Source: Levilactobacillus tongjiangensis (lineage in GTDB: Bacteria; Bacillota; Bacilli; Lactobacillales; Lactobacillaceae). From it: a DNA stretch of 64,000 nucleotides. Positions 40,811 to 62,887 of this stretch are shown piece by piece. The notes below the pieces were generated by a model. The model searched no databases, was not told the origin of the DNA, and saw only the letters and a list, made by a program, of their open reading frames with translations. The stretch spans positions 1-64,000 of the forward strand of contig NZ_RHNY01000012.1 in assembly GCF_003946345.1 (NCBI RefSeq). Reading direction: 5' to 3'. Both the position numbers and the translations under genes were made by a program. The number at the start of each line of letters is the position of its first letter. The stretch's first letter is position 1.

Positions 40811-41008
40811 CAATCCGTCGTCTCCGGCGGTCAAAGCGAGGGCCAGATGTGGGGACCAGAGAAAGCCAAGGAACGGTCTTTCTCCTCGACTTGAAGCCTC
40901 GGTAAATCGCCGAGGCCCCAAGCTCGTCCCACGATATCACTTGGCCGACCCACCAAGTGATATCGTCTGCACTGCTGCCCCCCGCTGTGGCCGCCTCCGA
41001 CTACATTG
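40811..41008 (-). repeat. Structured intergenic element, copy A (subfamily 1)
   Basis: About 198 nt lying between the terminator of the aldo/keto reductase gene and the rbsR promoter. Read on the minus strand: GGAGGCGGCC, a 5' stem arm, a 14-bp perfect hairpin (40931-40966), GGGACGAGCT (40921-40930), hairpin 2, AGTCGAGGA (about 40883-40890), hairpin 3 with AGACCG, TGGTCCCCAC (40849-40858), the 3' stem arm and CGGAGACGAC. It shares all these motifs with copies B and C. Function unknown. Confidence 0.7.
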
Positions 41009-41037
41009 GTGAATGAATTTTTAAAACCCGATTAGAC

Positions 41038-41070
41038 AAAAAAATGGCTATCAAGTTGCGACAGCCATTT
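41038..41070 (-). terminator. Terminator of the aldo/keto reductase gene
   Basis: 8-bp stem AAATGGCT / AGCCATTT with a short inner pair, followed by seven T on the minus strand. Confidence 0.85.
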
Positions 41071-41088
41071 CGAATATTCCAATTTAAA

Positions 41089-42078
41089 TTAAGCTTTTAA
41101 AATTTTATCGATAGCCGCTAATTGCTCTGGATCGAATTCTAAGTTTTGAACCGCCTTGATATTTTCCAGCAAGTGTTCAGGCTTAGATGCCCCAGTAATC
41201 ACGCTAGTAATCACTGGGTTGTGCAACAGCCACGCCAATGCCATATGCGACAACTTTTGACCCCGACTCTGTGCAATCTGATTCAAACCTAATAGCTTTT
41301 GATAAAGCTTGTCGCGGCCCTGCTTCAAGATGTATTCACTAGACCAGTGAATGTCAACGTCTTCAGGAATCCCATCCAAGTATTTGTCAGTCAATAAGCC
41401 CTCACATAAGGGACCGTACGCAATCGCACCGGCATTGTTTTCCCGTAACCGATCGAATAACCCGTCGTCTGCAGCGGACTGATTCAACATGTTGTAAGAA
41501 ACTTGGTCGACCACAAATGGTGTATGCAAGTCTTTAAAGATTTTGATCATTGCTAGAGCTTGTGGCGCCGTGTAGTTCGAAATACCAACATACAAAGTCT
41601 TGCCCTGCTTCACCAAATTATCCAAAGCAACCGCCGTTTCCTCTGGATCCGTCTCTGGGTCAAAACGGTGACTGTAGAAAATGTCAACGTAGTCCAAACC
41701 CATGGCTTGAAGTGACCGATCTAATGAGGCGGTCAATGCCTTACGCGAACTCATTTGTCCGTAAGGTCCTGGCCACATGTGGAAGCCCGCCTTACTACTG
41801 ATGATCAATTCATCACGATAGGGCTTCAATTCTCGTTCCAGAACTTGACCAAACAGCCGCTCTGCCTCGTAAGAACCAGGACCATAGTTGGCGGCTAAAT
41901 CAAAGCTAAAGATACCGGCGTCAAACGCCTTGAGGATGATGTCGCGGGTGTCACCGTAATTCGCGTTCTCCCCAAAACTATGCCACATGCCAAAAGAAAT
42001 AGCCGGTAACTGAAAACCCGTGTTACCAGCCCGCCGAATCGGCATTTTTTCATAACGATGTTCATCTGCAAGAAACAT
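41089..42078 (-). CDS. Aldo/keto reductase, YghZ/MgrA-like
   Basis: NADPH-dependent carbonyl reductase of the AKR14/Kv-beta group. The 329-aa protein has the catalytic tetrad: Asp in FDLAANYG, Tyr in NYGPG, Lys in SSKAGF and His in YSHRFD. YghZ relatives reduce L-glyceraldehyde 3-phosphate or methylglyoxal; the substrate here is not known. AAGGAAAG lies before the ATG. It has its own promoter, so it is separate from murQ. Confidence 0.9.
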   Translation of the reverse strand: MFLADEHRYEKMPIRRAGNTGFQLPAISFGMWHSFGENANYGDTRDIILKAFDAGIFSFDLAANYGPGSYEAERLFGQVLERELKPYRDELIISSKAGFHMWPGPYGQMSSRKALTASLDRSLQAMGLDYVDIFYSHRFDPETDPEETAVALDNLVKQGKTLYVGISNYTAPQALAMIKIFKDLHTPFVVDQVSYNMLNQSAADDGLFDRLRENNAGAIAYGPLCEGLLTDKYLDGIPEDVDIHWSSEYILKQGRDKLYQKLLGLNQIAQSRGQKLSHMALAWLLHNPVITSVITGASKPEHLLENIKAVQNLEFDPEQLAAIDKILKA

Positions 42079-42113
42079 TTTGCCACTTTCCTTTCCTCTT
42101 ATACCTAGTCTAA

Positions 42114-42142
42114 AGTATAGAGAATTGGTGTGGACCAGTCAA
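42114..42142 (-). promoter_or_regulatory. Promoter of the aldo/keto reductase gene
   Basis: TTGACT, 17-nt spacer, TATACT, 36 nt before the start. Strong match. Confidence 0.85.
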
Positions 42143-42151
42143 TCCATGACG

Positions 42152-43060
42152 TTACTGTTGATCGTCATTTAACTTGACCGCTTGTGACACGTGACCACCG
42201 GTAGCTGCCAACAAACTCTTGGCCTCGGCGATGGTTCCCTTCGTTTCAATCAGCACGATGGCTAAAGGAACGTTGTTACCCGCCCGATCTAAGGCCCGTT
42301 CTGCAGCTATCATGGACGTCTGAGTGGCTTCAGCAATGATCTTCTTGGCCCGTTCAAACGTCTTGCCATTGGTTGGCACCACGTTGATCATCAGGTTTTG
42401 ATAGACCTTCCCGGACTTAACCATGATTCCCGTGGACAGCATGTTCAGCACCATCTTTTCTGCGGTCCCCGCCTTTAAAAGCGTGGCCCCCGTGATGATT
42501 TCAGGACCAACGACCGGCGTAATTGGGTAGTCCGCCAGCTCAGCCAAGGGACTACCTTCAATGCAGGAAAAACCAATGCCTAAGGCACCTTGTTTCTGTG
42601 CATAGTCCAGGGCAGCTAGTGTGTATGGCGTTTGGCCGGAAGCAGCGCTCGCCACCACTACGTCCTGCGCCGTTAAATTGACTGCTGCTAAATCGTCGTG
42701 GGCTAGTTCCGGCGAATCTTCAGCCGATTGCACCGTATGCGTCAGTGCGTCAGCTCCACCGGCAATCAAGCCAAAAGTCTGTTCAGCCGTCAACCCATAA
42801 GTTGGTTGTAGTTCAGTGGCATCGATCACGCCTAACCGACCAGAAGTCCCGGCACCAATATAAATCAACCGGCCACCTTGATCAAACTTGGGGTAGGCAG
42901 CGTCAATCGCCGCCGCAATTTGAGGCAATTCCTTCTGTACCGCCCTAGCTACCCGGTGGTCCTCCCGGTTAATCGTTGCTACCATTTCTAACGTGGATTC
43001 CCGATCAATGTGCGTCGACCGGTGATTACGTTGCTCTGTTAGTAAGTCGTCAAATTGCAT
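42152..43060 (-). CDS. murQ: N-acetylmuramic acid 6-phosphate etherase
   Basis: Removes the lactyl ether from MurNAc 6-phosphate, giving GlcNAc 6-phosphate for peptidoglycan recycling. The 302-aa product shows the SIS fold with YIGAGTSGRLGVIDATELQPT and the C-terminal family motif NVVPTNGKTFERAKKII. GGAGG lies about 9 nt before the ATG. A MurNAc transporter or regulator is not adjacent. Confidence 0.94.
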   Translation of the reverse strand: MQFDDLLTEQRNHRSTHIDRESTLEMVATINREDHRVARAVQKELPQIAAAIDAAYPKFDQGGRLIYIGAGTSGRLGVIDATELQPTYGLTAEQTFGLIAGGADALTHTVQSAEDSPELAHDDLAAVNLTAQDVVVASAASGQTPYTLAALDYAQKQGALGIGFSCIEGSPLAELADYPITPVVGPEIITGATLLKAGTAEKMVLNMLSTGIMVKSGKVYQNLMINVVPTNGKTFERAKKIIAEATQTSMIAAERALDRAGNNVPLAIVLIETKGTIAEAKSLLAATGGHVSQAVKLNDDQQ

Positions 43061-43121
43061 AGTGTTCTGCCTCCAGCTCCGTGAATTGTCTTATGTATTC
43101 GCTTTCATAAGTCTTACTCTA

Positions 43122-43150
43122 GGTATAACATGTTTCATACGCAATTTCAA
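43122..43150 (-). promoter_or_regulatory. Promoter of murQ
   Basis: TTGAAA, 17-nt spacer, TATACC, about 60 nt before murQ. Upstream of it a short inverted repeat (TCTCAATT 43152-43159, AATTGAGA 43195-43202) could be an operator. The rest of the 43061-43310 gap is featureless. Confidence 0.55.
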
Positions 43151-43310
43151 TTCTCAATTAAAATCAGCCGGGAGTTTCGCTGGTCACCAGTCAAAATTGA
43201 GAGACACTTCACCTACAGCAAAAGTTTTCTGAAACGGCGCGATTATCTTGGCTCATTTACCGTTTAGCCACCTGGTTTTTCAAATTGAGGGGACGGCTTG
43301 AATCCAAAAT

Positions 43311-43342
43311 AAAAAAAACGTACGGAATTTTCATTCCGTACG
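43311..43342 (-). terminator. Terminator of the amidase-oppA unit
   Basis: Perfect 10-bp stem CGTACGGAAT / ATTCCGTACG with a 4-nt loop and eight T on the minus strand. Confidence 0.92.
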
Positions 43343-43355
43343 CCTACTGACATGA

Positions 43356-45002
43356 CTATTTTTTCAATTCCATCCATTGGTACCCACGACTCATCCCCGC
43401 TGGGTTCCAAACATAACCCGAAACCTTAGGATTCCACATCTCAACCGTAGCTGGTTGATACAGAGGTACCAGGCCTTGTTGCGTCATCAGCCGCTTTTCA
43501 GCTCTAACTAAGTCTTGGTAACGAGCAGTTGGATTGTTGGCATCCTGATTCTCAGACTTTTTAACATCGCTATCGTACTTGGCGTCGGAAAAACCACCAT
43601 TGTTATTGGTGTTACCAGTACTCATCAACGATAAGAAGTTGATTGGATCAGCAAAGTCGGCGCCCCAACTTGAAATAACTAAATCAAAGTTCCCCGCATT
43701 CGACCGACTTAACCGAGTCTTGTACGGCAACGTATTAATAGAAACCTTCACGTTCGGTAGCTTCTGCAACTCTGCTTGAATGTACTGGGCAACCGTCTTC
43801 GTGACACTGGTATCATCAGCCATCAGCGTTAAGTCCAATTGCTTCGTACCAGATGCCTTCAGACCGGCCTTCATCAATTTTTTGGCCGCGGTCAAGTTGT
43901 AAGCAACCCCATCCTTGACGTAAGCATCCTTAGCAAAGTCAGCCTTAGTCTTAGGGTTCTGCGTCAAATTCTCGGACACAAAGCCCAGTGGTGCCTTGGA
44001 CCCATCCCGCAACACGCTCTTTGCCAATTGTTTCTTATCAATTGCTAATGACAGAGCTTGACGAACTTTCAGATTTTTCAGCGCCTTGACCCGCTTTTGA
44101 TTCATTTGCATGTAATAGGTCGTTCCGCCGACAAAGGTTTTCATGTCACTGTTGTTCTTCAGGTTCGCAACCTGTGTCCCATCCAAAGTCGTGGCATCCA
44201 GTTCCTTCTTTTGATACAAGTTCAAGCCCGTCGATGGGTCAGCCACAACCTGGAAGTTTAACTTCTTTAAAGTAATGGCCTTTTTGTCCCAAAATTGCGG
44301 ATTCTTTACCAACGTCCAGCTCTGATCGGTCCCCTGCCATTTAGTCATGACAAATGGGCCATCGTAAGCTGTCTTGTCACTGGAATGACCGTAGTCGCTA
44401 CCATACTTCTCCACGACACTCTGTTCCTGTGGGAAGAAGGTTGGAAAGGCCAACAACAATTTAAAGTAGGCCACTGGTTTGCTCAAAGTTACCTGTAATG
44501 TTGACTTATTCAGAGCTTTCACACCCAGTTGGCTAGGCGCCAATTTGCCACTTTGAACGGCGCTGTAGTTTTTAATTCCTGCCATCAGGTAGGCGTATTC
44601 AGCCGCTGTCTTAGGTGCGGCCGTCCGCCGCCAAGAATAAACGAAGTCCTGGGCAGTGACCGCCTTACCGTCGTTCCAGTGGTTATTCTTCCGCAGGTTA
44701 AAGACGTAGGTCTTCCCACCGTTTGAAACCGTGGTCTTCGTCGCCAATGCATTAATTAATTTTTCCTTTTTACCTAACCGATACAAGCCCTCTTGGGTGT
44801 GGTATAGCTGGGTCAAACTGGTCGAGTCCGCCGCTTTAGATACATCCAGCGTGGTGACCTCGGATTTAGTCGAGAGCTTGACGTCTTGCTTAGCCGCCAA
44901 TTGTCCCGAATTGTTTGAAGACGTTGACTTACCACAGGCAGCCAATCCCCCGGCTACCAATAGTGTCGCTCCGATTAAAAGTCCTAACTGTTTTCCCTTC
45001 AA
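43356..45002 (-). CDS. Peptide ABC transporter substrate-binding lipoprotein (OppA-like)
   Basis: Surface lipoprotein that binds peptides, solute-binding family 5. The 548-aa precursor has a lipobox (GGLAACGKS) with Cys near residue 23, and the family's TYVFNLRKNNHWNDGKAVTAQDFVYSWRR segment. The start is TTG 8 nt behind GGAG. No permease or ATPase gene is adjacent; such orphan binding proteins usually share an Opp transporter or act in peptide sensing. It follows the amidase by 12 nt. Confidence 0.9.
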   Translation of the reverse strand: MKGKQLGLLIGATLLVAGGLAACGKSTSSNNSGQLAAKQDVKLSTKSEVTTLDVSKAADSTSLTQLYHTQEGLYRLGKKEKLINALATKTTVSNGGKTYVFNLRKNNHWNDGKAVTAQDFVYSWRRTAAPKTAAEYAYLMAGIKNYSAVQSGKLAPSQLGVKALNKSTLQVTLSKPVAYFKLLLAFPTFFPQEQSVVEKYGSDYGHSSDKTAYDGPFVMTKWQGTDQSWTLVKNPQFWDKKAITLKKLNFQVVADPSTGLNLYQKKELDATTLDGTQVANLKNNSDMKTFVGGTTYYMQMNQKRVKALKNLKVRQALSLAIDKKQLAKSVLRDGSKAPLGFVSENLTQNPKTKADFAKDAYVKDGVAYNLTAAKKLMKAGLKASGTKQLDLTLMADDTSVTKTVAQYIQAELQKLPNVKVSINTLPYKTRLSRSNAGNFDLVISSWGADFADPINFLSLMSTGNTNNNGGFSDAKYDSDVKKSENQDANNPTARYQDLVRAEKRLMTQQGLVPLYQPATVEMWNPKVSGYVWNPAGMSRGYQWMELKK

Positions 45003-45014
45003 AACGTTCGCTCC

Positions 45015-46502
45015 TCAATCCAATTTAGTTGCATGTAACCATTTTAACCGTCCTGCCCGTTCAAATAAAGCGCCAAGTCTCAAAAGCCGCAATTCTTCTC
45101 CCTTAGCGGCATTAAATTGAATGCCCAGAGGTAAGCTGCCGGCCGTAATTGCGGTCGGCAGACTAATGGCCGGTTCACCAGTAAGATTGGCCTGTTGCGT
45201 AAATGGTGAGCGCGTTAGTGCGGGTAGCCATTGGTCATAGATCAACTGTTTCTGCGCAGCCGCAGACAATCCCACAATATCAGCCATTTTGGCTGCATTT
45301 TCAGGCGAGACCAGTGAATCTCCCACCTTAGGCGCTGGCCAAGCTGTCGTCGGCGTCAGCACCACCGGATATTTCGCATGTAATTGGGCCATCTGCCAAG
45401 CAGCCTGGTCCCATTTGCCCAGTGCTAAGCTGTAATCAGCGGCAGTCGTTTTCAGCCCCGTCTGATAAAGGGCCCAGGTCAGCAGCTCCATGTCATTGGC
45501 CTGCAGCGGCCGTCCAAGCCCCGCGGCCAGTTCACTCATAAAGGCTGCGGTCTCACCTGCATTCATGGTGTAGTAGCTTTCCATGAGCGCAACGCCATCG
45601 ATCGGGTTAGGCACCTCTTCCACGTCAAATCCTTGCTCCGTTAGAAAACTAACGGCCGCCATTACCGCTTGGACAGCATCGGAACTGACTGGCGTCCCCA
45701 CCGGTGACTCAGTGGTATAACCAATCACGCTAGGTTGAACCGGTTGTTCTAACTGAGCGGTGAAACTTGGCCGAACTAAGGGCGTTTGAAAGACTGCGGC
45801 GGGCTGTAAGACCTGCAAGCTGTCCAGTAGAGCTGCCGTGTCCTTAATGGAGCGAGTCAGTCCAAAATCAATCGCCGCCCCCTGCCAAGACCGCCAGTCG
45901 CCGGGCCCCACGGGAACTCGACCACGCGTGGGCTTTAACCCAATCGTACCGGACCAGGAAGACGGAATCCGAATTGAACCGCCCCCATCACTCCCAGCCG
46001 CGATGGGGACCAGACCAGCCGCAACGGCAGCGCCAGCCCCACCAGAGGAACCACCCGGTTGGTAGTCTAGATTCCAGGGATTATGAGCATCCCCATATAG
46101 TTGTGAATCCGTAATATTTTTAAAGCCAAATTCAGGATAATTGGTCTGACCAATCACAATAAAACCGGCTCGTCGTAAAGCTTCAACAAAAAAACTGGTT
46201 TGTGAAGCCACGTTAGCTTTCAATAATTGAGAGCCACTGGTACTTGGCAGGCCCTGCAACTGTTGGCCCAACCCCTTCAATAGTAAAGGAACTCCCAGGA
46301 AGGGTTGACCGGTATCAACTTGTTCAGCGGCTTCCTGTAACGCCTGTTCCTTACGCGTAGAAATAACCGCGTTCAACTGCGGATTCTGCCGATTGATTTC
46401 TGTAAACGCTGCTTCAACTAACTCCTGACTAGTGACCTCACCGTCACGCACCCGTTGGCCCCACGTTAATGCGGGTGTACCAATCCAATCGTTCAGTCCC
46501 AA
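45015..46502 (-). CDS. Amidase signature family hydrolase
   Basis: Amide hydrolase with a Ser-cisSer-Lys triad: Lys in LLLKGLGQ, Ser in GGSSGGAGAAVAAG and Ser in GSDGGGSIRIPSSW. Length 495 aa. The start is TTG, 8 nt behind GGAGG. It does not belong to a GatCAB set (no gatC/gatB nearby); substrate unknown. Co-transcription with an OppA-like lipoprotein suggests a link to peptide or amino-acid amide use, an inference from position only. Confidence 0.9.
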   Translation of the reverse strand: MGLNDWIGTPALTWGQRVRDGEVTSQELVEAAFTEINRQNPQLNAVISTRKEQALQEAAEQVDTGQPFLGVPLLLKGLGQQLQGLPSTSGSQLLKANVASQTSFFVEALRRAGFIVIGQTNYPEFGFKNITDSQLYGDAHNPWNLDYQPGGSSGGAGAAVAAGLVPIAAGSDGGGSIRIPSSWSGTIGLKPTRGRVPVGPGDWRSWQGAAIDFGLTRSIKDTAALLDSLQVLQPAAVFQTPLVRPSFTAQLEQPVQPSVIGYTTESPVGTPVSSDAVQAVMAAVSFLTEQGFDVEEVPNPIDGVALMESYYTMNAGETAAFMSELAAGLGRPLQANDMELLTWALYQTGLKTTAADYSLALGKWDQAAWQMAQLHAKYPVVLTPTTAWPAPKVGDSLVSPENAAKMADIVGLSAAAQKQLIYDQWLPALTRSPFTQQANLTGEPAISLPTAITAGSLPLGIQFNAAKGEELRLLRLGALFERAGRLKWLHATKLD

Positions 46503-46542
46503 ACGGACCGCCTCCTCAGTTTCAATGTAAAAATAAATTCAT

Positions 46543-46833
46543 TACGCTTGGTGCTAGTTGGATTAGCTTGCCACTCTGGTTGGCCCAGAATCGGCTGTCG
46601 TTAACTAACAAGAACTAAAGGATTAACAATTGATTATTTTAAGCACAGTTGTTTAGCCGAGAGGTTGGATTCTAAAATGCTCAGCCGTGTCGTTGGCCTT
46701 AGTGCGTGTGTTTTTCTCGGACTGAGGCCAAGGTCAGTTTTGAAGACCGCTGTTTGACTTCAAAATGGCCCATGGCGTTCCAGCTTTTTAAAATCTAACC
46801 GGTAGACGTCAATTCCAACTAGCACCAAGCGTA
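46543..46833. repeat. 20-bp perfect inverted repeats bracketing element D
   Basis: TACGCTTGGTGCTAGTTGGA at 46543-46562 has its exact reverse complement at 46814-46833, 251 nt apart. The pair encloses structured element D and about 90 nt to its left. It looks like the ends of a small mobile unit or a very long hairpin; no target duplication was clear. Confidence 0.75.
46653..46808 (+). repeat. Structured intergenic element, copy D (subfamily 2)
   Basis: Begins AGCCGAGAGGTTGG, then a stem arm that pairs with AAAATCTAACC at 46790-46800, GCTCAGCCGTG, hairpin 2 (TTGGCCTTAG / CTGAGGCCAA), hairpin 3 (TTTTGAAGACCG ... CTTCAAAA), GGCGTTCCAGC and AACCGGTAGACG. These landmarks match copy E in order. 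Lies between amidase and prs. Confidence 0.65.
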
Positions 46834-46992
46834 TTCATTATGACCGCACAAAGTAAGTAAATGTTATATGACAGAAGGCAGTTAGCTAGTGAGCATCAGC
46901 GTCGTGCGTCGAAAGATCCTGACCCTGCGTTGTTTTCAAAGTAAAGCTAGCCTACCTTCTAACGCGCATTTCAGCAAAGTAAGCTGAAAGCT

Positions 46993-47035
46993 AAAAAAAG
47001 AGGATGAGACTTCTGCCTCACTCCCCCTTAACGCT
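46993..47035 (-). terminator. Probable terminator of prs
   Basis: Minus-strand GAGTGAG ... CTCATCCTC imperfect hairpin followed by TTTTTTT, 15-50 nt after the prs stop. A small TTTCAGC/GCTGAAA hairpin follows at 46970-46989. Confidence 0.5.
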
Positions 47036-47045
47036 TGCTTTAAGT

Positions 47046-48032
47046 CTATTGTTTTTGTCGCTTAACCACCGGGTGGAACAATGAATCGACTGGTTCTTCA
47101 TGGTAAATCAAGTCGATAGCCTTCCCGAACAACTCACCCACGGACATCACAACAAACTTGTCGATCTGCTTTCTTTCGGGTAGTTGAATGGAGTCGGTAA
47201 TGACGACCTTCTTCAACACAGACTTTTCGATTCGCTCTGGCGCATCGCCAGACAGTACGGCATGCGTCGCACAGGCATAAACATCGTCCGCACCAGCTGC
47301 CTTCAGCGCATCCGCAGATACCGTGATTCGAATAGCCGTGTCAATAATATCATCAACCAGGATACAGTGCTTACCGCGCACATCCCCAATCACGGCTTCC
47401 GGATGAGCCACACTTTCCGTGTCCGTTCGGTTATCAATGATGGCAATCGGTGCACCAAGAATTTCGGCTAACCGCCGGGCCCGACTCACACCGGCATGAT
47501 CTGGCGCCACGACAACGATATCCTCATCGGCCAAACTCGTGCTGTCTTCAAACCAACTCGTCAACAGTTGGTCACTTTGTAAGTGATCGACTGGAATGTC
47601 AAAGAAACCTTGTAACTGTGCTGCATGGAGGTCCAGGGCAATCACCCGGTTGACCCCATCCATCTGCATCAGTGACGCAATTAATTTGGCCGTAATTGGT
47701 TCCCGTGAACGAGCTTTACGGTCAGCCCGTGAATATCCGTAGTATGGAATAACCACGTTGATCTTGGCAGCACTCGCCCGCCGAGCGGCATCTACCATGA
47801 TCAAGAGTTCCATCAAATTGGTGTTAACGGGATCGGATACGGATTGAATCAAGAAGAGCTCGTCGCCCCGAATACTTTCATCGATACTGATCTGAATTTC
47901 GCCATCACTAAAGTGCTTAATTGTTGCTTTACCTAATTCAACGCCTGCCGCCTTTGCAATCTTTTCAGCAAGCGGCCGATTAGAATTTAACGCAAAGACT
48001 TTCATTCTGCCAGCTTCGACGTGTTCTGCCAT
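47046..48032 (-). CDS. prs: Ribose-phosphate pyrophosphokinase (PRPP synthetase)
   Basis: Makes PRPP from ribose 5-phosphate and ATP for nucleotide, His and Trp synthesis. The 328-aa product includes the class I motifs [38 protein letters not shown] and the PRPP loop [19 protein letters not shown] precedes the ATG. Length is slightly above the usual 315-320 because of a short N-terminal extension (MAEHVEAGR). Confidence 0.96.
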
Positions 48033-50645: not shown

Positions 50646-50660
50646 CCGCTCGTCTCCTCC

Positions 50661-52180: not shown

Positions 52181-52328
52181 TATTAATATTTTGATTATGG
52201 TTGTTGGCTAAACGCTTGCACCACCAAGAAAAGTGATGCAACCCTGCTCCCATTTTTCAATGACACCCTCAACACTACATGGCTGACCAATGAACCAGAT
52301 TAACTGAGCTTCAATTCAGCTTCGTAGC

Positions 52329-52515
52329 TGGAGGTTGGCAAAGATGGTGTCGGTTGTGTCGATGGCGTTAGCTTGGGTGATTTATCCCAAGCTTAGGCCA
52401 TGGGACGAGCTGGGAGACTCAATGAACTTCTGAGGCTTCCAGTCGAGGAGCAAGACCGCACTACGGCTTGCTCCGGTCCCCACAACAGACGTCATCTTTG
52501 CCAATCGGAGGCATC
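52329..52515 (+). repeat. Structured intergenic element, copy B (subfamily 1)
   Basis: GGAGGTTGGC at 52330-52339; stem arm TTGGCAAAGATG pairs with CATCTTTGCCAA at 52493-52504; hairpin 1 GCTTGGG/CCCAAGC; GGGACGAGCT (52402-52411); hairpin 2 CTGG ... CCAG; AGTCGAGGA (52441-52449); hairpin 3 GAGCAAG ... CTTGCTC; CGGTCCCCAC (52474-52483); end ATCGGAGGC. Lies between the phosphatase gene and mnmA, antisense to both. Confidence 0.7.
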
Positions 52516-52543
52516 AATTGCGGACAGTAAATCAAAGACAAAC

Positions 52544-53740
<1,197 letters not shown>

Positions 53741-53868: not shown

Positions 53869-53884
53869 GCACCGATGACTCAGT

Positions 53885-55662: not shown

Positions 55663-55691
55663 ATCTTAGCGCCTTTAATTATTATCGTCAA
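55663..55691 (-). promoter_or_regulatory. Promoter of the acetyltransferase pair
   Basis: TTGACG, exact 17-nt spacer and TAAGAT, 90 nt before the start. Confidence 0.75.
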
Positions 55692-55819
55692 CGGTTAATA
55701 TAATGCTTTAAATTACCGGGTGCTATCCAGCTAGGTAGCAGCTCAGATATCACCCCACATTATTGAATGTGTCACTATCGTTGCAACCAAAATCGTGCCG
55801 CGCTGACTTCTCGTTCTAC

Positions 55820-55850
55820 AAAAAAAGTGGCCCTCCCTGAGGAAAGCCAC
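55820..55850 (-). terminator. Terminator of the csp-to-DUF1831 operon
   Basis: GTGGC ... GCCAC hairpin with inner TTCC/GGGA pairs and a seven-T run, 8 nt after the DUF1831 stop. Confidence 0.85.
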
Positions 55851-55857
55851 CACGTAA

Positions 55858-56199
55858 TTACTTCTTTTGTAAAATCTCACGGTCAATCAAGTTTTGCAGA
55901 ATAAAGTGATATTGTTCCACATTGCCCTCGGCATGGGCACCCTTGAAAATATTGACCCGCGCGTTGCCAGACGCATTGGTCGTGGACATCTTGAAGCCAC
56001 TCAAATCCTTAGCAACAATCACCTTTAACATTTGGTTCTTATTGTAGGGTGACGTGGGATCAACGGAGCGTTCGAGTGTGTAGTTCCCCGCGTTGGAGAC
56101 TTGGAACCCGACGTCCTTCAGTGCGTATGGCTTCACGTTAGGGTGGAGTTCATACGTATCCGTATCACCATCAACCTGCATTGTCTTTTCAAATAACAT
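55858..56199 (-). CDS. DUF1831 family protein
   Basis: A 113-aa cytoplasmic protein of the lactobacillar DUF1831 family (MLFEKTMQVDGDTDTYELHP; GNVEQYHFILQNLIDREIL). It follows the cysteine desulfurase gene by 1 nt, the usual place of this family. A role in sulfur transfer is guessed from position only. Confidence 0.82.
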   Translation of the reverse strand: MLFEKTMQVDGDTDTYELHPNVKPYALKDVGFQVSNAGNYTLERSVDPTSPYNKNQMLKVIVAKDLSGFKMSTTNASGNARVNIFKGAHAEGNVEQYHFILQNLIDREILQKK

Positions 56200-56200
56200 C

Positions 56201-57397
56201 CTACTTCACCTCACTGTGGGATAGGCGCTTCACAATGGCGCTCACATTTTTAACAAACGCATCAATCTCTGAACTCGTCGTCTGCTGACCAAATGACAAC
56301 CGAATCGATTCAGCAATCCGGGGACTGTCCTCACCAAACATAGCAGTCAGCACGTGCGATGGCTCGATTGAACCAGCGGTACATGCGGAACCACCAGAAA
56401 CGGCGATGCCAGCCAGATCAAGGTTCGTTTGCATCACATAAGTCGAAATACCCTTGATCCAGATATTCAATACGTGTTCCAAGTTTTCACCTTCCAGAGA
56501 ACCGTTGATATCGAAGTCAACGCCATTGGCGGTCAACCCTTTCACAACCTGTTCCTTGAAGCCGTGGAAACGGACGCGTTTTTCTTCTTTAGCGGCTGGC
56601 GTCAAGAGTTCAACGGCCTTGGCAAAGCCGGCAATAGCTGGGACGTTTTCCGTACCGGCCCGCCGCTTTTCCTCTTGGTCGCCACCCTTGATCAGACTAG
56701 GGAAGTTGACCCCTTCCCGTTTGTACAGGAAACCAATCATCTTAGGACCATTGATTTTGTGGGCGGACGTCGACAGTAAGTCAATGTGATCTGCCTGCAC
56801 GTCAATGTCCAACGAACCATACGCCTGAACAGCATCCGTGTGGAACCAAGCTTGATGATCCTTTAAGATCTCACCAATCTCGTGAATCGGCATCCGACTT
56901 CCCACTTCATTGTTCCCCATCATGATAGTCACCAGAATGGTGTCATCACGGAGAGCCGCCTTGAAATCGTCCAAACTGATTCGACCCTGTTCATCAACGG
57001 GCAGATACGTGACCTCAAACCCTTTTTCCTCCAACGCATGCAGTGGTCGTAACACGGCTTCGTGTTCCACTGCGGTCGAGATGATGTGTTTGCCTAAGGA
57101 CTGGCGGGTCAACGCCGTCTGAGTAATAGCGGTGTTATCGCCCTCACTTCCGCCACTAGTGAAGATGATCTCTTCATCGTGGGCAGCATTGATGCTGTTG
57201 GCAATTACTTGCCGACTATTTTCCATCAGGGTGTGGGCTTGCCGCCCTAACCCATACAACGTCGAGGCGTTGCCGTAGACGTTGGCCATCTTATCCGTCA
57301 TCTCTGCCAAGACCTCTGGGGCCATTGGTGTCGTGGCGGCGTTGTCCAGGTAGATTTCCTGGACAGCATTACTATTACTTACATGAACCTCTTGCAC
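56201..57397 (-). CDS. Cysteine desulfurase (NifS/IscS family)
   Basis: PLP enzyme releasing sulfur from cysteine as a persulfide. The 398-aa product has YLDNAATTPMAPEVL, the PLP Lys in STSAHKINGPK, and the active Cys in SGGSACTAGS. The start is GTG, 8 nt behind GGAGG. Without suf or isc genes nearby but close to mnmA, it is likely to feed tRNA thiolation. Confidence 0.92.
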   Translation of the reverse strand: MQEVHVSNSNAVQEIYLDNAATTPMAPEVLAEMTDKMANVYGNASTLYGLGRQAHTLMENSRQVIANSINAAHDEEIIFTSGGSEGDNTAITQTALTRQSLGKHIISTAVEHEAVLRPLHALEEKGFEVTYLPVDEQGRISLDDFKAALRDDTILVTIMMGNNEVGSRMPIHEIGEILKDHQAWFHTDAVQAYGSLDIDVQADHIDLLSTSAHKINGPKMIGFLYKREGVNFPSLIKGGDQEEKRRAGTENVPAIAGFAKAVELLTPAAKEEKRVRFHGFKEQVVKGLTANGVDFDINGSLEGENLEHVLNIWIKGISTYVMQTNLDLAGIAVSGGSACTAGSIEPSHVLTAMFGEDSPRIAESIRLSFGQQTTSSEIDAFVKNVSAIVKRLSHSEVK

Positions 57398-57424
57398 CCT
57401 AAAAACCTCCTGAATAAACCTGAA

Positions 57425-58117
57425 CTAGTCCTGTGCGGCTAGCAGGTCCAGTAACATTTGTGCGGAACGGTGGCCCGCATCAACAATAAAGTCATCAAAA
57501 TTAACACCAGAATCATTGTCGGCGTTGTCAGACATTGCCCGAACCACCACGTAAGGGACGTCAAATTGGTGAGCAACTTGACCCACAGCGGCCCCTTCCA
57601 TTTCACCAGATAATGCATCTGGGAAGTGCCCCATGATGTCCTTAATGGTTGCCGGACTGTTTAAGAACTGGTCGCCAGACACGATCAAGCCCAGCTTCGT
57701 CTTCAAGCCTGTGTCAGCAGCAGCGGCCACAATCTTTTGACCCCACTCCTTGGAGGCAACAAACCGCGCTGGTTGTTGTGGTAATTGGCCGTATTCGTAC
57801 CCAAAAGCCCGCGCATCAGCGTCGTGGTAGGCCGTTTCAGTCGAGACCACCACGTCACCAATATTTAGGTCAGGCGCCAAGGCCCCGGCAGAACCAGAGT
57901 TGATCACAATATCCACGTTGAACTGAGTAATCAACAGGGCCGTCGTCAAGCCAGCTTCAACCTTACCAATACCGGAACGCACCAACACGACTTGTTGACC
58001 GTGAATCGTTCCTTGATAAAATCCCAACCCGTGAACGTCAATCGTTTGACCGTCTTCCAAGGCATCGTGCAGTTCTTTAATTTCTTCTTCCATGGCGCAG
58101 AGAATTCCAAATGTCAT
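57425..58117 (-). CDS. mtnN: 5'-methylthioadenosine/S-adenosylhomocysteine nucleosidase
   Basis: Cleaves MTA and SAH to adenine and thioribose or S-ribosylhomocysteine, the step before LuxS. The 230-aa protein contains GIGKVEAGLTTALL, SGSAGAL, VVSTETAYHDAD and VVRAMSDNAD with the catalytic Asp. GGAG lies some 13 nt before the ATG. It is in a methyl/sulfur-linked operon with a cysteine desulfurase. Confidence 0.95.
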   Translation of the reverse strand: MTFGILCAMEEEIKELHDALEDGQTIDVHGLGFYQGTIHGQQVVLVRSGIGKVEAGLTTALLITQFNVDIVINSGSAGALAPDLNIGDVVVSTETAYHDADARAFGYEYGQLPQQPARFVASKEWGQKIVAAAADTGLKTKLGLIVSGDQFLNSPATIKDIMGHFPDALSGEMEGAAVGQVAHQFDVPYVVVRAMSDNADNDSGVNFDDFIVDAGHRSAQMLLDLLAAQD

Positions 58118-58134
58118 GTGCTGTGTTCCACTCC

Positions 58135-58434
58135 TTAAATTTCAACAAAAAATAGTATTACATAAACGATAATGATTAAAACTGATAGCCAAAAAATGGC
58201 CCAATTTAAGCGGTGGCCCAACCGTTTTTGCTTACTTTCAGTTGGGTTGACTCGCTGTTCCTCAGGACGTTCATCATTGGCCGGCTCATTGCCATGCCGT
58301 CGCGCGTATTCCTTTTCTACCTGAACCCGTTTTCGGTCCCGTTCTTGAAATTCCTGCTCGGCTTGTTCCTGTTCACGACGATAGTCTGCCCGGGTTTTTG
58401 GCCGGTCACTAGTTTCTCGCTCGTCTGAATGCAT
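58135..58434 (-). CDS. Small hypothetical protein with C-terminal membrane anchor
   Basis: A 99-aa protein: strongly charged, Glu/Arg/Gln-rich N-terminal three quarters (YRREQEQAEQEFQERDRKRV, likely coiled coil) followed by one membrane segment (WAIFWLSVLIIIVYVILFF). ATG 58434 lies 5 nt behind AGGTGA; a GTG at 58443 lacks a site. Function unknown. Confidence 0.75.
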   Translation of the reverse strand: MHSDERETSDRPKTRADYRREQEQAEQEFQERDRKRVQVEKEYARRHGNEPANDERPEEQRVNPTESKQKRLGHRLNWAIFWLSVLIIIVYVILFFVEI

Positions 58435-58443
58435 CGCTGTCAC

Positions 58444-58986
58444 CTACTTCTGTAATAGCCAGTAATAGATGGCCGTAATTGTCTTGGCATCGTTGATCTC
58501 GCCACTTTCAATCATGGCTTGCGCTTGTTCCTTGGTTACCGTCAGCAATTCCAGGTTTTCACCCTTGTCACGGGGCAACTCGGTTTGAACGGGCTGCAAG
58601 TCCGTGGCCAAGAACAGCGTCATGTACTCATCCGAGAACCCAACGCTGGAATAGAAACCGGTAATTCGTTTTAACTGCCCTGGTTGCATCCGAATTTCTT
58701 CGTTTAACTCCCGCTTAACGGCGTGTTCAACGTTATCAGCATCCCGGCTGTCCAATTTACCAGCTGGAATTTCCAAGGTCACTGCCGCAACCGGCGCGCG
58801 CCACTGCTTTTCCAAAATCATTTGGTTATCCGCCGTCAGGGCTAAAATACCCACCGCACCGGAATGCCGCACGATTTCTCGAAATGCTTGTTTACCATCG
58901 GGTAACCGCACTTCTTGACGTTCTAATTTTAAAATGGCACCGTCGTAAATCTCTTCGGTATTCTCAACGTGTTCTTCTAAGTCCAT
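58444..58986 (-). CDS. NUDIX hydrolase, probable ADP-ribose pyrophosphatase
   Basis: A 180-aa housecleaning hydrolase similar to NudF/YqkG. The Nudix box GKLDSRDADNVEHAVKRELN EEIR is present but departs from consensus: two extra residues, Asp for the first Glu, and Arg for the terminal Gly; the catalytic REL.EE core is intact. The FYSSVGFSDEYMTLFLA segment is typical of ADP-ribose enzymes. Its ATG comes 1 nt after the csp stop. Confidence 0.88.
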   Translation of the reverse strand: MDLEEHVENTEEIYDGAILKLERQEVRLPDGKQAFREIVRHSGAVGILALTADNQMILEKQWRAPVAAVTLEIPAGKLDSRDADNVEHAVKRELNEEIRMQPGQLKRITGFYSSVGFSDEYMTLFLATDLQPVQTELPRDKGENLELLTVTKEQAQAMIESGEINDAKTITAIYYWLLQK

Positions 58987-58987
58987 G

Positions 58988-59212
58988 TTAAGCCTCCTCA
59001 GTGGAGCCCGTCACAACGGGTGTTACTTTAGCCGCTTGGAGGCCACGCAACCCTTGGACAACAACAAATTGTACCGTTTGACCAACTTCCAGCTTCTTGA
59101 AGCCTTCACCAACGATGGCCGTGTAGTAGACGAAAATGTCGCCGTCTGCGGGTGTCGTAATGAATCCAAAGCCGCGTTGTTCACTGTAACTCTTTACTTT
59201 TCCGGTTAACAT
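58988..59212 (-). CDS. Cold-shock-domain protein (atypical)
   Basis: A 74-aa single-stranded nucleic-acid binding protein starting MLTGKVKSYSEQRGFGFITT. RNP1 is close to consensus (RGFGFI), but RNP2 reads IFVYYTAI instead of VFVHFSAI, and the C-terminus carries extra residues (VVTGSTEEA). It leads the nudix operon instead of standing alone, so it may not be the major cold-shock protein. GGGAGGG precedes the ATG. Confidence 0.88.
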   Translation of the reverse strand: MLTGKVKSYSEQRGFGFITTPADGDIFVYYTAIVGEGFKKLEVGQTVQFVVVQGLRGLQAAKVTPVVTGSTEEA

Positions 59213-59237
59213 GGTATCCCTCCCATACATAGCACAA

Positions 59238-59266
59238 ATTATACTCGCTTGCGTTGACGACCGCAA
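59238..59266 (-). promoter_or_regulatory. Promoter of the csp operon
   Basis: TTGCGG, 17-nt spacer and perfect TATAAT, 26 nt before the csp start; the mRNA leader is therefore very short. A second TATAAT lies at about 59287-59294. Confidence 0.75.
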
Positions 59267-59321
59267 ACCGGGGCACTTATTGTGGCATTATATTCGGCAT
59301 CACAACTAATTTGACACACAA

Positions 59322-59380
59322 AAGAAGTGCTACGCCAACCACCCCTCCCAATGAACGAGGTGGTTCTCATAGCACTTCTT
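59322..59380. terminator. Long bidirectional terminator between csp and elements F/C
   Basis: 11-bp stem AAGAAGTGCTA / TAGCACTTCTT with inner AACCACC / GGTGGTT. T-runs on both sides (TTTT on minus, ATTTTTT on plus). It is the first terminator downstream of ileS, 400 nt beyond the stop. Confidence 0.85.
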
Positions 59381-59404
59381 ATTTTTTAGCTAAATTCGAA
59401 ATTC

Positions 59405-59520
59405 AGCGTAGTCAGTCGCCTTGCCGGCCGCCAGGTATGGGCTGGAACGGCAGAGCGTCCTCCGGTTGATAGTGATCAACCTCGTAATTACTCGGTAGCC
59501 ATTACACAACCTAAAACAAA
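59405..59520 (-). repeat. Structured intergenic element, partial copy F
   Basis: Its 3' part on the minus strand, CCGTTCCAGC (59438-59447 region) followed by TGGCGGCCGGCAAGGCGA, matches the 3' part of copy E (TGGCGACCGGTAAGGCGA) with two changes. A hairpin GGTTGA/TCAACC and AGCCATTAC/GTATGGGCT pairing are present, but several middle motifs are missing, so it looks shortened or decayed. Confidence 0.5.
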
Positions 59521-59569
59521 TGTTGAACATAGTGATACCTACCGAATGGCCGATAAAAGTTATCCGTTT

Positions 59570-59750
59570 CGGAGGTTGGCCGGGTCAGCACCAGCCGTGT
59601 AGGTGTTAGTTGCCTGTGATTTCCAGGTAACTAACACGGGACGAGCTTGAAGACACGGTGACTTTCCGCGGCTTCAAGTCGAGGAACAAGACCGCTTTCT
59701 GGCTTGTTCCGGTCCCCACGGCAGGTGCTGACCCGGTCAACCGGAGACGC
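59570..59750 (+). repeat. Structured intergenic element, copy C (subfamily 1)
   Basis: GGAGGTTGGCC at 59571; stem arm CCGGGTCAGCACC pairs with GGTGCTGACCCGG (59724-59736); hairpin 1 GTGTTAGTT / AACTAACAC; GGGACGAGCT (59638-59647); hairpin 2 CTTGAAG / CTTCAAG; AGTCGAGGA (about 59677-59685); hairpin 3 GAACAAG ... CTTGTTC; CGGTCCCCAC (59710-59719); end AACCGGAGACG. Sits 27 nt after the ileS stop, antisense to ileS. Confidence 0.72.
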
Positions 59751-59776
59751 CATGACCAGTTCAATCAGCTAACTGA

Positions 59777-62587
59777 TTACTTTTCTTCGAAACCTTCAGT
59801 AGCAGTTTCAGGGAAGTTTTGACGAACGATTGCGGCACAACGCGCACAGAAGTGTGGGTAGTCCGTATCGCTGCCAACGTCTTCCTTAACCAACCGACAA
59901 CGGTCACAAACATCACCAGCAGCTGGCGTTACCTTAACAGCAACGTGATCAAAGCTCAATGCATCAGCTGGTGCTTGGTCTAACGCAGCAACATCTAAGC
60001 CAGAAACCAGCAAGATTTGTTGCACGTTGATCGCCAGCTTGTCTAACATTGCTTGCGTTTCATCGTCAACGTATAAGTCGAGGTGGGCTTCGGCAGCCTT
60101 CCCAATCAACTTAGCATCCCGAGCTTCTTCCAAAGCCTTCAAGACGTGGCTCCGCAGCTTCATGAAGTGATTCCAGGCTGACTTTTCATCATCCCCGGCA
60201 ACTTCAGTAGCATCGTCCATGTCCAGGACCTTTGGCATTTCAGCCAATTGAACGAAGTCTTCTGGTTCCTTCAAGAAGTCCCAGATCTCTTCAGCCGTGT
60301 GTGGCAAGATTGGTGTAATCAACTTCGTCAACGTAACAGCGATTTGATAGAAGACCGTTTGCATTGACCGACGAGCCTGACTGTCTTCGGCTTCGATGTA
60401 GAGAACATCTTTGGCGAAGTCCAGGTAGAAAGCTGACAGATCAGTGATGACAAAGTTCGTGAGTTCCTTGTAGATGTTCAGGAAGTCATAGTCTTCGTAG
60501 TGGGCCAAGATGCTCTTGGTGAAGGCGTTCAACTTGTACAACATGTGACGGTCAACCGTCTCTAACTGGTCAAATGCCACGCCGTTGGTCTCAGGATCGA
60601 AATCACTGGTGTTAGCCAACAAGTAACGCATCGTGTTCCGTAGCTTCTTGTAGCTGTCAGAGATCTTCACGAAGGCTTCGGTTGACACCCGCACGTCGGC
60701 AGATGAATCCACAGAAGTAACCCAGAGACGAACGATGTCGGCCCCCATCTTCTTGATGATTTCATCCGGTGCAATCGTGTTACCAAGGGACTTAGACATC
60801 TTGTGACCATCTTTGTCCAACGTGAATCCTTGGGAAACGACTTGCTTGTAAGGGGCTTTGCCGGTTGCGGCAACACTCGTAATTAAACTAGAGTTGAACC
60901 AGCCACGGTATTGGTCTGAACCTTCCAGGTACAAATCAGCTGGGAATTCAAGGTTATCCCGTTCAGCTAAGACACCTTGGTGTGAAGAACCTGAATCGAA
61001 CCAAACGTCCATGATATCAGTTTCCTTAGTGAACTCACCGTTTGGCGAATGTTCACTGGTAAAGCCTTCAGGTAATAAGTCTTTGGCTTCACGCTTGAAC
61101 CATTCGTTAGACCCAAACTTTTCAAAGATATCAGCAACGTGGCTGACCGTTTCTGGCGTGATGATAGCTTCACCATCTTCACCATAGAAGATAGGCAATG
61201 GCACACCCCAGACCCGTTGACGAGAGATAACCCAGTCGCCACGATCTTTGATCATGTTGGCCAAACGACGTTGACCCCAGTCTGGCTTGAACTTAACGTC
61301 CTTCAAGTTAGCCAGGATTTCGTCACGAATCTTGTCTACGGACGCAAACCATTGTGGCGTCGCCCGGAAGATAACGGGCTTCTTGGTCCGCCAATCAAAT
61401 GGGTAACTGTGTTCGTAAGGCATGTACTTGAGCAAAGCATTCGTTTCCTTCAGCTTGTTCAAAGCAATGTCATTGGCATCTTCGTAGAAAACACCATCAA
61501 AGTCGGGACCAGCTTCAGCGGTCATAAACCCTTGGTCGTTGACTGGTACAATGACTGGCAAGCCATACTGCATCCCAACGTTAAAGTCATCTTCCCCTAA
61601 GCCTGGCGCGGTATGAACCAAACCGGTACCAGTCTCATCAGTAACGAAATCACCCAGCATAACCAGTAATTTCCGGTCCATAAATGGGTGTTGCGCCGTA
61701 ATCTTTTCGAGGTCTTGACCCTTGATAGTTTGTAAGACCTTGACGTCTTCCCAACCAAACAATTTAGCGTCTTCGTCAATCAACGTGCTAGCTAAAACAA
61801 ATTTACGGTCTTCACCAGCTGGTTGAACAACTTGGTATTCCAACCCTGCGTCAATGGTAATCCCTTCAGAAGCGGGCACCGTCCAAGGCGTCGTCGTCCA
61901 GACAACCAAGTACGTGTCGTTATCCAAAACACCCTTGCCGTCAACGACCTTCAACCCATAGTAAGCAGAAGGTGACGTCACATCGTGGTATTCAACTTCG
62001 GCTTCAGCCATGGCTGATTCAGAGGACCATGACCAGTAAACTGGCTTCTTCCCCTTGTAGATCAGACCACGCTTAGCCATTTCACCGAAGACCCGAACTT
62101 CTTGGGCTTCGAATTCTGGATTCAACGTCAAGTATGGCTTATCCCATTCGCCGGCAACCCCTAGACGCTTGAAACCTTCGCGTTGTTGGTCAACTTGCTT
62201 CAAAGCGTATTCACGACAAAGGTCACGGAAGTCCGCGGTTGACATCTTCTTCCGGTCGTAGCCGGCCTTGGTCAATTGTTGTTCAATTGGCAAACCATGA
62301 GTATCCCAACCAGGAACGTAAGGTGCCCGGAACCCATTCATTGATTTGTAGCGAATGATGATATCCTTTGAAATTTTGTTTAACGCGTGACCCATGTGAA
62401 TGGGACCGTTAGCGTATGGAGGCCCATCGTGCAAAATAAAGCTGGGCTTCCCTTCATTTAATTTTTGACGGGCTTCGTAAACTTTGTTATCGGCCCAGGC
62501 CTTTTGCCGGTCAACTTCTTTGACTGGTAAGTTCCCGCGCATCTTAAACTTAGTCTTACCCAAGTTCAGTGTGTCTTTCACTCGCAT
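59777..62587 (-). CDS. ileS: Isoleucyl-tRNA synthetase
   Basis: Class I aminoacyl-tRNA synthetase charging tRNA-Ile, with editing activity. The 936-aa protein has HIGH-type [14 protein letters not shown], the CP1 editing domain ([12 protein letters not shown]), KMSKS in [11 protein letters not shown], and a C-terminal Cys4 zinc knot (CDRCR ... CARC). GGAGG lies 8 nt before the ATG. Regulated by a T-box about 480 nt upstream. Confidence 0.97.
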
Positions 62588-62615
62588 ACCGTTTTCCTCC
62601 TTGATTTTTGTTACT

Positions 62616-62677
62616 CGGTTGGTGAACCGGTGAGCTCAAACTGCTTGGCAGTCTCAGCTCTCCGGTCAACCCGACCG
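62616..62677 (-). repeat. Long hairpin directly before ileS
   Basis: CGGT/ACCG, ACCGG/CCGGT, GAGCT/AGCTC and ACTGC/GCAGT pair in order around a tiny loop, ending about 30 nt before the ileS start codon. Its 5' arm (TTGACCGGAGA on minus) resembles the end motif of the structured element family, so it may be a remnant. Confidence 0.6.
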
Positions 62678-62699
62678 TTAGTTTCCCTCACCATCTTTT

Positions 62700-62887
62700 G
62701 GGTAGTGGTGAGTGTTTTTCGCCTTACCGGTCGCCAGCCAGGTGCCGGAACGCTGTGCGCGCGTTTGGGAGCCAAAGTACGGTCTCCCAAGCCGGCGTTG
62801 CCTAACCACGGAAAACCACCGTGATAAGGCAATTCCACGGCTGAGCCCCTGGCTGGCTCCCTCTCGGCTAACATTCACCACTCACCC
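62700..62887 (-). repeat. Structured intergenic element, copy E (subfamily 2)
   Basis: Closed by GGGTGAGTGGTGAATGTT facing AACACTCACCACTACCC. On the minus strand AGCCGAGAGG, CCAGCCAGG pairing with CCTGGCTGG, GGCTCAGCCGTG, hairpin 2 (62798-62832, TTGCCT/AGGCAA), hairpin 3 (62765-62790, TTGGGAGACCG ... CTCCCAA), GCGTTCCGGC and ACCGGTAAGGCG. Matches copy D in order. Lies between the T-box terminator and ileS. Confidence 0.68.

What the first reader, a model, noticed from the sequence alone, without database searches (positions are those of the whole stretch)
40811..62887. A dispersed family of structured intergenic elements, at least five copies in 64 kb
Copies A (40811-41008), B (52329-52515), C (59570-59750), D (46653-46808) and E (62700-62887) share short motifs in the same order, while the stems between motifs differ in sequence yet stay complementary. 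In A-C: GGAGG start, GGGACGAGCT, AGTCGAGGA, AGACCG in hairpin 3, GGTCCCCAC, end CGGAG. GGGAC can pair with GTCCC, enclosing hairpins 2 and 3. D and E share AGCCGAGAGG, GCTCAGCCGTG, AGACCG, GCGTTCC and ACCGGTA. The AGACCG hairpin and the ends (AACCGGAGACG in C, AACCGGTAGACG in D) join both groups. Complementary change at many stem positions indicates selection on RNA or single-stranded DNA structure. I cannot name the family.
Basis: partly seen in the sequence, partly recalled or inferred. Interest (0 to 1): 0.85.

Follow-up and report, generated by a model that had tools for sequence, protein, structure and literature searches.

The report
Widely dispersed gene-facing structured RNA repeats
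Between the genes of this lactic acid bacterium lie well over a hundred copies of a roughly 190-base element that matches no catalogued RNA family, whose folded RNA shape is kept by evolution and which as a rule points its tail at the neighbouring gene, hinting at an unrecognised way of marking gene borders.

Summary
Copies A-C (type I) and D-E (type II) lie at the stated places; A and E are on the minus strand. A covariance model from 17 type I copies gives 113 matches in the 821 kb of this genome that I held (30%); by proportion 350-400 per genome. It hits 33 of 35 Levilactobacillus genomes (own included) and 11 of 40 sampled Lactobacillaceae genera. No Rfam family fits. Of 68 base pairs, 60 change on both sides in some copy (shuffles 42.7). 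Between orthologues in a sister species, stems change at 3.5% and unpaired bases at 10.9%; stem changes favour G-U over A-C (45:14), with no such bias in the flanks. So copies appear to be selected in place, as RNA, in one fixed direction. Position is polar: within 100 bp of a stop codon 101 copies are antisense and 1 sense (two species pooled); next to start codons mostly sense. The 3' end faces the gene. Some copies ride in MITE-like elements; losses are internal deletions. Best mechanism, inferred only: a mobile-derived cis-acting RNA boundary signal on transcripts entering genes from intergenic DNA. Closest known kinds: pneumococcal BOX and REP/BIME repeats.

The parts
40816..41004 (-). 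Copy A, type I element; its 3' end faces the LacI-family gene 39701-40744 (-) about 70 bp away
   Evidence: model R1 170.5 bits; present in L. yonginensis, truncated in G028; gene by Pfam
52324..52516 (+). Copy B, type I element; its 3' end lies 28 bp from the stop codon of the antisense gene 52544-53671 (-), tRNA_Me_trans family
   Evidence: 181.7 bits; in place in G010 and in G028 (L184:15335-15527, within the alignment); spacing
59565..59752 (+). Copy C, type I element; its 3' end lies 25 bp from the stop codon of the antisense IleRS-like gene 59777-62587 (-)
   Evidence: 177.0 bits; in place in G010 and in G028 (L184:8053-8239, within the alignment); spacing
46653..46811 (+). Copy D, type II element inside a TIR-bounded insertion
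   Evidence: 35.7 bits; insertion absent in G028
46544..46562 (+). Left terminal inverted repeat of the insertion carrying D (ACGCTTGGTGCTAGTTGGA); ATTCATT precedes it
   Evidence: read from the own/G028 alignment
46814..46832 (-). Right terminal inverted repeat of the insertion carrying D; ATTCATT follows it (putative target duplication)
   Evidence: read from the sequence
62717..62871 (-). Copy E, type II element in the leader between a T-box and the IleRS-like gene; its interior is of another subtype in G028
   Evidence: 53.3 bits; three-species alignment
62700..62714 (+). Arm of an inverted repeat that flanks E
   Evidence: sequence
62872..62887 (-). Second arm of the inverted repeat that flanks E
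   Evidence: sequence
63076..63301 (-). T-box leader upstream of E and the IleRS-like gene (context, not a family member)
   Evidence: RF00230, 69.8 bits, below the gathering score of 93

Best explanation
This is a family of about 155-195 nt multi-helix elements (at least four subtypes), present in nearly all Levilactobacillus genomes tested, that were spread as, or inside, small mobile DNA elements and are now selected copy by copy as RNA read in one fixed direction. An outer stem P1 with a symmetric GGA/GGA (type I) or GAGA/GGTAA (type II) internal loop encloses hairpin P2 and, in type I, a GGGAC/GTCCC helix holding two hairpins, one with the near-invariant AGACCG...GGCT loop. Copies sit at gene borders with the 3' end toward the gene: antisense next to stop codons, mostly sense upstream of start codons. 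The mechanism I think most likely is inferred: a cis-acting processing or decay signal on RNAs that leave intergenic DNA and are about to enter a gene, such as read-through from a convergent neighbour, antisense RNA, or upstream read-in. It would separate them from the gene's own mRNA. A signal of this kind just after a gene's own stop codon would strip the message of its 3' end, which would explain why sense copies are missing there. Shown: family, structure, in-place RNA-strand constraint, polarity, losses by deletion. Inferred: transcription, processing, benefit to the host.
For: Covariation: 60 of 68 pairs with both-side changes (shuffles 42.7), 92.6% of cells paired against 35-43% when slid. 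In-place constraint, 38 orthologous pairs with L. yonginensis: stems 160/4564 (3.5%), unpaired 258/2377 (10.9%); single-side changes 99 kept and 34 broken; 13 double changes (9 kept) against 2.8 expected; 100-bp flanks 15.6% upstream and 6.9% downstream. Stems are about as constrained in all three gene contexts. Strand: WC to G-U 45, WC to A-C 14 (A>G 19, T>C 1), flanks unbiased. Polarity, two species pooled with shared copies counted twice: within 100 bp of a stop, antisense 101 and sense 1; within 200 bp of a start, sense 48 and antisense 7. Neighbours under 700 bp apart: own 32 divergent, 9 tandem, 0 convergent; L. yonginensis 39, 6, 0. In convergent intergenic regions a sense element goes with fewer intrinsic terminators, 44 of 84 against 72% matched. 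No Rho over the cut-off in 35 of 35 genomes. The neighbouring genes looked at are diverse.
Against: No transcript or cleavage was seen; no RNA data were available. No promoter enrichment upstream of the elements. Copies are dispensable, since several were lost by internal deletion in one of two sister species. Two of 35 Levilactobacillus genomes have none, and 29 of 40 sampled genera gave no hit, though under strict filters and with 10 candidates scored per genome. The G-U/A-C asymmetry is weaker among the best-scoring type I copies (16:9 at 140 bits or more, 29:5 below). In co-directional intergenic regions the sense element does not go with fewer terminators (33 of 50 against 62% matched). 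Enrichment between convergent genes is also the mark of merely tolerated repeats (PMC3049150, passage).
Confidence: 0.37

Rival explanations
1. Selfish BOX- or MITE-like repeats without host function: the structure is needed for mobility (as RNA or single-stranded DNA) and copies persist where they do least harm.
For: A 595-bp MITE-like element with TIR CTAAAGGTTGAAAG carries a divergent pair of elements, at 13 full or deleted loci in the own DNA held. D sits in a TIR-bounded insertion absent from G028. Two paired units lie inverted in place in the sister species. Elements are in 22 of 47 convergent but 7 of 52 divergent intergenic regions over 250 bp (own; L. yonginensis 32 of 51 and 8 of 53). 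Copies are lost by deletion.
Against: Static orthologous copies show stem constraint and G-U/A-C asymmetry, which selection for mobility cannot impose on copies that do not move. The 101:1 polarity at stop codons needs a further cause.
Confidence: 0.3
2. The sense RNA is an unusual transcription terminator that insulates genes in bacteria without Rho.
For: No Rho; fewer intrinsic terminators before sense elements in convergent regions; strong GC-rich fold.
Against: Only 1 sense against 101 antisense copies within 100 bp after stop codons, where terminators belong. No U tract in the 3' flank consensus. Of 41 sense copies 45-220 nt before a start codon, 12 end 45-62 nt before it, several with a Shine-Dalgarno-like site and little room for a promoter, though one orthologous pair has a -10-like site there and start codons are uncertain. 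E lies between the T-box and the IleRS-like gene.
Confidence: 0.12
3. Stem complementarity is kept by mutation, not selection: template switching at DNA hairpins corrects quasi-palindromes.
For: Both-side changes and long near-perfect stems; several hairpin-interior deletions.
Against: It does not predict the strand asymmetry (WC to G-U 45, to A-C 14, flanks unbiased), the invariant unpaired motifs, or the low substitution rate of stems.
Confidence: 0.08
4. A family of independently expressed small RNAs, one gene per copy.
For: RNA-strand selection; riboswitch-like conserved core.
Against: No promoter enrichment upstream and few sense terminators downstream (13 within 150 bp at 171 copies); very many copies next to unrelated genes.
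Confidence: 0.08

Closest known systems
BOX elements of Streptococcus pneumoniae (with RUP and SPRITE; PMC3049150)
   Different: No sequence relation was tested directly. This family has a multi-branched fold with near-invariant loops, extends over at least 11 Lactobacillaceae genera, has a strong 3'-end-to-gene polarity, and shows in-place RNA-strand constraint.
REP/BIME elements of enterobacteria (recalled)
   Same: Next to stop codons, in inverted pairs, hundreds of copies.
   Different: REPs are short single hairpins tied to RAYT Y1 transposases (recalled); here the element is 155-195 nt with several helices, and Y1 transposases do not track its presence.
Bacterial MITEs
   Same: Some copies lie in TIR-bounded, non-coding, repeated units with putative short target duplications.
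   Different: Most type I copies have no recognisable TIR (10 of 55 above the 95% control), and orthologous copies are conserved in place for structure.
Lacto-usp, Lacto-rpoB, L17 downstream element and other Lactobacillales RNA motifs (PMC2864571, table seen by passage)
   Same: Structured RNAs of Lactobacillales.
   Different: No Rfam family matches the elements in the window or the loci of other genera tested; those motifs are not dispersed in hundreds of copies (recalled).

Membership tests
Any Rfam family (release 15) | covariance-model match at gathering score, or a plausible weaker one | tested here: not met
   0 matches in the window at gathering level; at E<=10 only a T-box outside the elements; at E<=1 in 12 loci of other genera only tRNAs in L262 and three weak sub-threshold rows
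MITE | terminal inverted repeats | tested here: inconclusive
   met for the 595-bp compound element and the D insertion; flank complementarity is above the 95% control for 10 of 55 own copies of 120 bits or more, 1 of 22, 5 of 28, and 10 of 55 in L. yonginensis
MITE | target site duplication | tested here: inconclusive
   ATTCATT around D, and approximate 7-9 bp repeats by eye around several compound copies
MITE | autonomous partner with the same TIR | tested here: not met
   inverted TIR pairs in the DNA held span 198-595 bp, none transposon-sized; most of each genome was not searched; no match of the 596-bp unit in the plasmid or phage collections
REP/BIME | co-occurrence with a Y1 (RAYT-like) transposase | tested here: not met
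   Y1_Tnp in 23 of 35 Levilactobacillus; genomes without it (G002, G012, G030) fill all 44 scored candidates, and G022 and G031 with it have none
BOX | boxA-boxB-boxC module sequence | not tested
   no BOX sequence was fetched for comparison
Intrinsic terminator | stem followed by a U tract on the functional strand | tested here: not met
   3' end consensus CCGGAGGCGGCC then ATTTAAG and A-rich; few sense terminators downstream
Intrinsic terminator | sense position shortly after stop codons | tested here: not met
   1 sense against 101 antisense within 100 bp
Riboswitch or leader of a regulon | sense, upstream of related genes | tested here: not met
   the neighbours looked at are unrelated (Fur family, ABC transporter, IleRS-like, histidine phosphatase and others) and most copies near stop codons are antisense

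The most novel reading that the evidence does not exclude
Lactobacillaceae that lack Rho carry a genome-wide RNA border system: several hundred domesticated, mobile-derived structured RNA signals, placed at gene borders with the 3' end to the gene, that cut, stop or tag antisense and read-in transcripts and so do the policing that Rho does elsewhere.
Probability: 0.15. Interest if true: 0.92.

Novelty: new variant of a known kind. Interest (0 to 1): 0.74.

Why it matters
Bacterial interspersed repeats are usually regarded as tolerated debris. Here is a family, abundant in food bacteria, whose copies are conserved in place as RNA and set with a strong polarity relative to genes. That makes a long-standing question, whether such repeats work for the host, directly testable by RNA-seq and single-copy deletion. 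If they act on antisense or read-in RNA, they would also suggest how Rho-less Firmicutes keep transcripts apart.

Tried and rejected
IS1182 lead: one search was meant to search the MITE-like unit but named the wrong locus (L162 in place of L163), so its two hits, one beside an IS1182 transposase on a Levilactobacillus brevis plasmid, concern another stretch. The model finds nothing at that plasmid site up to E 10. The right unit (L163:5582-6177) has no match in plasmids or phages.

Viral carriage: 29 IMG/VR stretches matched a loose pattern, but the model gives nothing better than 14 bits in them. Copy C has no match in the phage or plasmid collections. Plasmid searches with elements of other genera gave no match for L242, L239 and L244; L251 hit two L. 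brevis plasmids.

Y1 transposase as mobiliser: presence does not track the elements. Rho: the matches to the Rho model reach 39 bits at most against a cut-off of 509.

Own promoters: no enrichment upstream. Promoter between sense element and start codon: not decidable by scan. Element as substitute for the terminator of the gene it abuts: 0 of 59 genes have a terminator before an antisense copy within 30 nt of the stop, but so short a stretch can hardly hold one; without a sense copy further on, such genes have a terminator somewhere in the intergenic region in 21 of 29 cases, against 153 of 197 genes without any element. So that idea is not supported, and pair selection is on the other strand even for abutting copies.

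Literature: searches listed no description of this family in the open-access library; subscription papers and bioRxiv are not held there.

Weak points: genes are mechanical ORFs of 100 codons or more (90), so start codons are uncertain. The own and L. yonginensis sets share orthologous copies and are not independent. Alignment A7 was fitted to the model's structure. Alignments A5 and A6 were capped at 150 of 161 and 150 of 152 matches. Of the 113 own matches, 3 are shorter than 120 nt, 8 score under 45 bits and one pair overlaps.
Full report
The observation. The pattern GGGACGAGCT-N20-45-AGTCGAGGA occurs 18 times in the 2.72-Mb genome and 0 times in the backward control; a type II pattern occurs 4 times against 0. 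RNAalifold on 17 type I copies gives 68 pairs, 39 with a compensatory change.

Size and spread. A covariance model R1 scored 150 of 1022 candidates in the own genome, the cap, and all 150 matched at E below 3e-14. In the 821 kb that I held (30% of the genome) 113 matches at E<=0.001 remain after overlapping antisense ones are removed; by proportion that is about 370 per genome, which is an extrapolation. Of 35 Levilactobacillus genomes (own included) 33 have matches at E<=1e-6, one of them only 4, and 0 of 23 genomes of other families of the order do. Of 251 Lactobacillaceae genomes drawn, 58 match, in 11 of 40 genera, under stricter filters. Of 14 such genomes scored more deeply, 6 have 92-143 matches among 150 candidates and 8 have 6-36. 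The genus is named because genome G010 shares contig lengths with L. yonginensis JCM 18023; one further named hit is Furfurilactobacillus milii. Rfam has no match.

Architecture. P1, the outer stem, begins GCC-GGA-GG and ends CC-GGA-GGC in type I. It encloses P2 and a GGGAC/GTCCC helix that holds two hairpins, the second with AGACCG...GGCT. Types II (D, E), III (in the MITE) and IV (at site E in G028, and near C41:91000) share the ends and some loops but differ inside. On 76 aligned copies 92.6% of cells pair against 35-43% when slid; 60 of 68 pairs change on both sides in some copy against 42.7 in shuffles; 949 such cells against 247. That alignment was fitted to the model, so the MAFFT-based count is the less biased one.

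Selection on RNA, in place. Of 58 own copies with a syntenic projection in L. yonginensis (fetched parts only), 49 were given a partner and 9 were not; some pairings are wrong or flipped, and the 38 with at least 85% identity and a row in the model alignment were used. Stems differ at 160 of 4564 sites, unpaired sites at 258 of 2377. Single-side changes keep the pair 99 times and break it 34 times; double changes number 13, against 2.8 expected, and 9 are kept. From Watson-Crick pairs, 45 changes give G-U and 14 give A-C (A>G 19, T>C 1; C>T 26, G>A 13), while the flanks are unbiased (T>C 116, A>G 116, G>A 107, C>T 102). Upstream flanks differ at 15.6% and downstream at 6.9%. Stems are similarly constrained next to start codons (3.3%), within 30 nt of stop codons (3.8%) and further from them (3.6%); the asymmetry is weaker in the copies of 140 bits or more (16:9) than below (29:5). 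Across copies G-U exceeds A-C in each context. A symmetric DNA-level process would not make this strand difference, so the element strand seems to work as RNA.

Polarity. Neighbours closer than 700 bp are divergent 32 times, tandem 9 times, convergent never in the own DNA held, and 39, 6 and 0 times in L. yonginensis; eight divergent pairs are visible among the listed hits of genome G277 of another genus. Next to stop codons within 100 bp, 101 copies are antisense to the gene and 1 is sense (own 40:1, L. yonginensis 61:0); within 200 bp of start codons 48 are sense and 7 antisense (copies shared by the two species count twice). In intergenic regions with a single copy the 3' end is the nearer one in 30 of 39 (own) and 36 of 43 (L. 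yonginensis). 59 genes have an antisense copy within 30 nt of their stop, and of 73 genes with the copy 31-200 nt away 46 have a terminator in between. In convergent regions with a sense copy 44 of 84 have an intrinsic terminator before it, against a matched 72% (0 of 400 resamplings as low); in co-directional regions 33 of 50 against 62%, no difference.

Mobility and turnover. A 595-bp element with TIR CTAAAGGTTGAAAG carries a type III copy and a type I-like copy in divergent order with a spacer of about 76 bp, at 13 full or deleted loci in the own DNA held. Two paired units, at C41:1398 and C41:84623, lie inverted in place in L. yonginensis: each copy matches the partner of the opposite position at 89-91%. 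D lies in a TIR-bounded insertion missing from G028; in G010 1.7 kb stands there instead. Type I copies are mostly shared by the sister species; where one is missing, arms or ends usually remain, so it was lost by internal deletion. At E the outer ends are the same in three species, while in G028 the interior and both inner P1 arms are of another subtype, which suggests recombination between subtypes.

Mechanism. Facts to satisfy: RNA in the sense direction is selected; sense copies are absent just after stop codons; some sense copies end 45-62 nt before a start codon (12 of 41) and one lies in the leader between a T-box and an IleRS-like gene (E); copies abut stop codons in antisense; divergent promoter regions are avoided. 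A terminator fails on the second and third facts. A processing or decay signal for RNA that enters a gene from intergenic DNA satisfies all of them, and the absence of Rho gives such a signal a reason. This is inference; no RNA data were at hand.

What is known. BOX repeats of pneumococcus are the nearest described kind: structured, interspersed, enriched between convergent genes, one forming a composite with two T-box riboswitches, slow in current mobility (PMC3049150, passages). REP/BIME resemble it in location and inverted pairing (recalled). I found no description of the present family (searches; listings only, apart from passages of PMC3049150, PMC2267715 and PMC2864571).

Noticed in passing
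window 63076-63301 (-) and 59777-62587 (-): A T-box leader (69.8 bits, under its gathering score) upstream of an IleRS-like gene, with copy E inserted in the leader between them.
   Followed up: partly
L163:5582-6177 (C23:185582-186177), C23:63648-64235, C34:91868-92440 and others (own genome): A 595-bp MITE-like family with 14-bp TIR CTAAAGGTTGAAAG; no autonomous partner in the DNA held; no match in plasmids or phages.
   Followed up: partly
C41:1398-1830 and C41:84623-85015 (L164, L168): Two divergent element pairs lie inverted in place between the own genome and L. yonginensis.
   Followed up: partly
window 46544-46832: A 289-bp insertion with 19-bp TIR carrying D; absent in G028, with 1.7 kb in its place in L. 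yonginensis.
   Followed up: partly
L172-L182 (G028:C1:1-220000): No match to the model (E<=0.001) in the first 220 kb of this chromosome, although copies follow from about 225 kb on.
   Followed up: no
all 35 Levilactobacillus genomes held: No protein over the cut-off of the Rho model; the best match is 39 bits against 509.
   Followed up: partly
L269, L270 (Levilactobacillus brevis plasmids NZ_CP021461.1, NZ_CP103392.1), about 2501-2613: A type II-like copy about 45 bp from the stop codon of an S8 peptidase gene, with the same polarity as in the chromosome.
   Followed up: partly
L013/L014 and L051: Tandem copies in head-to-tail order, one with a repeat unit of about 166 bp that includes part of the flank.
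   Followed up: no
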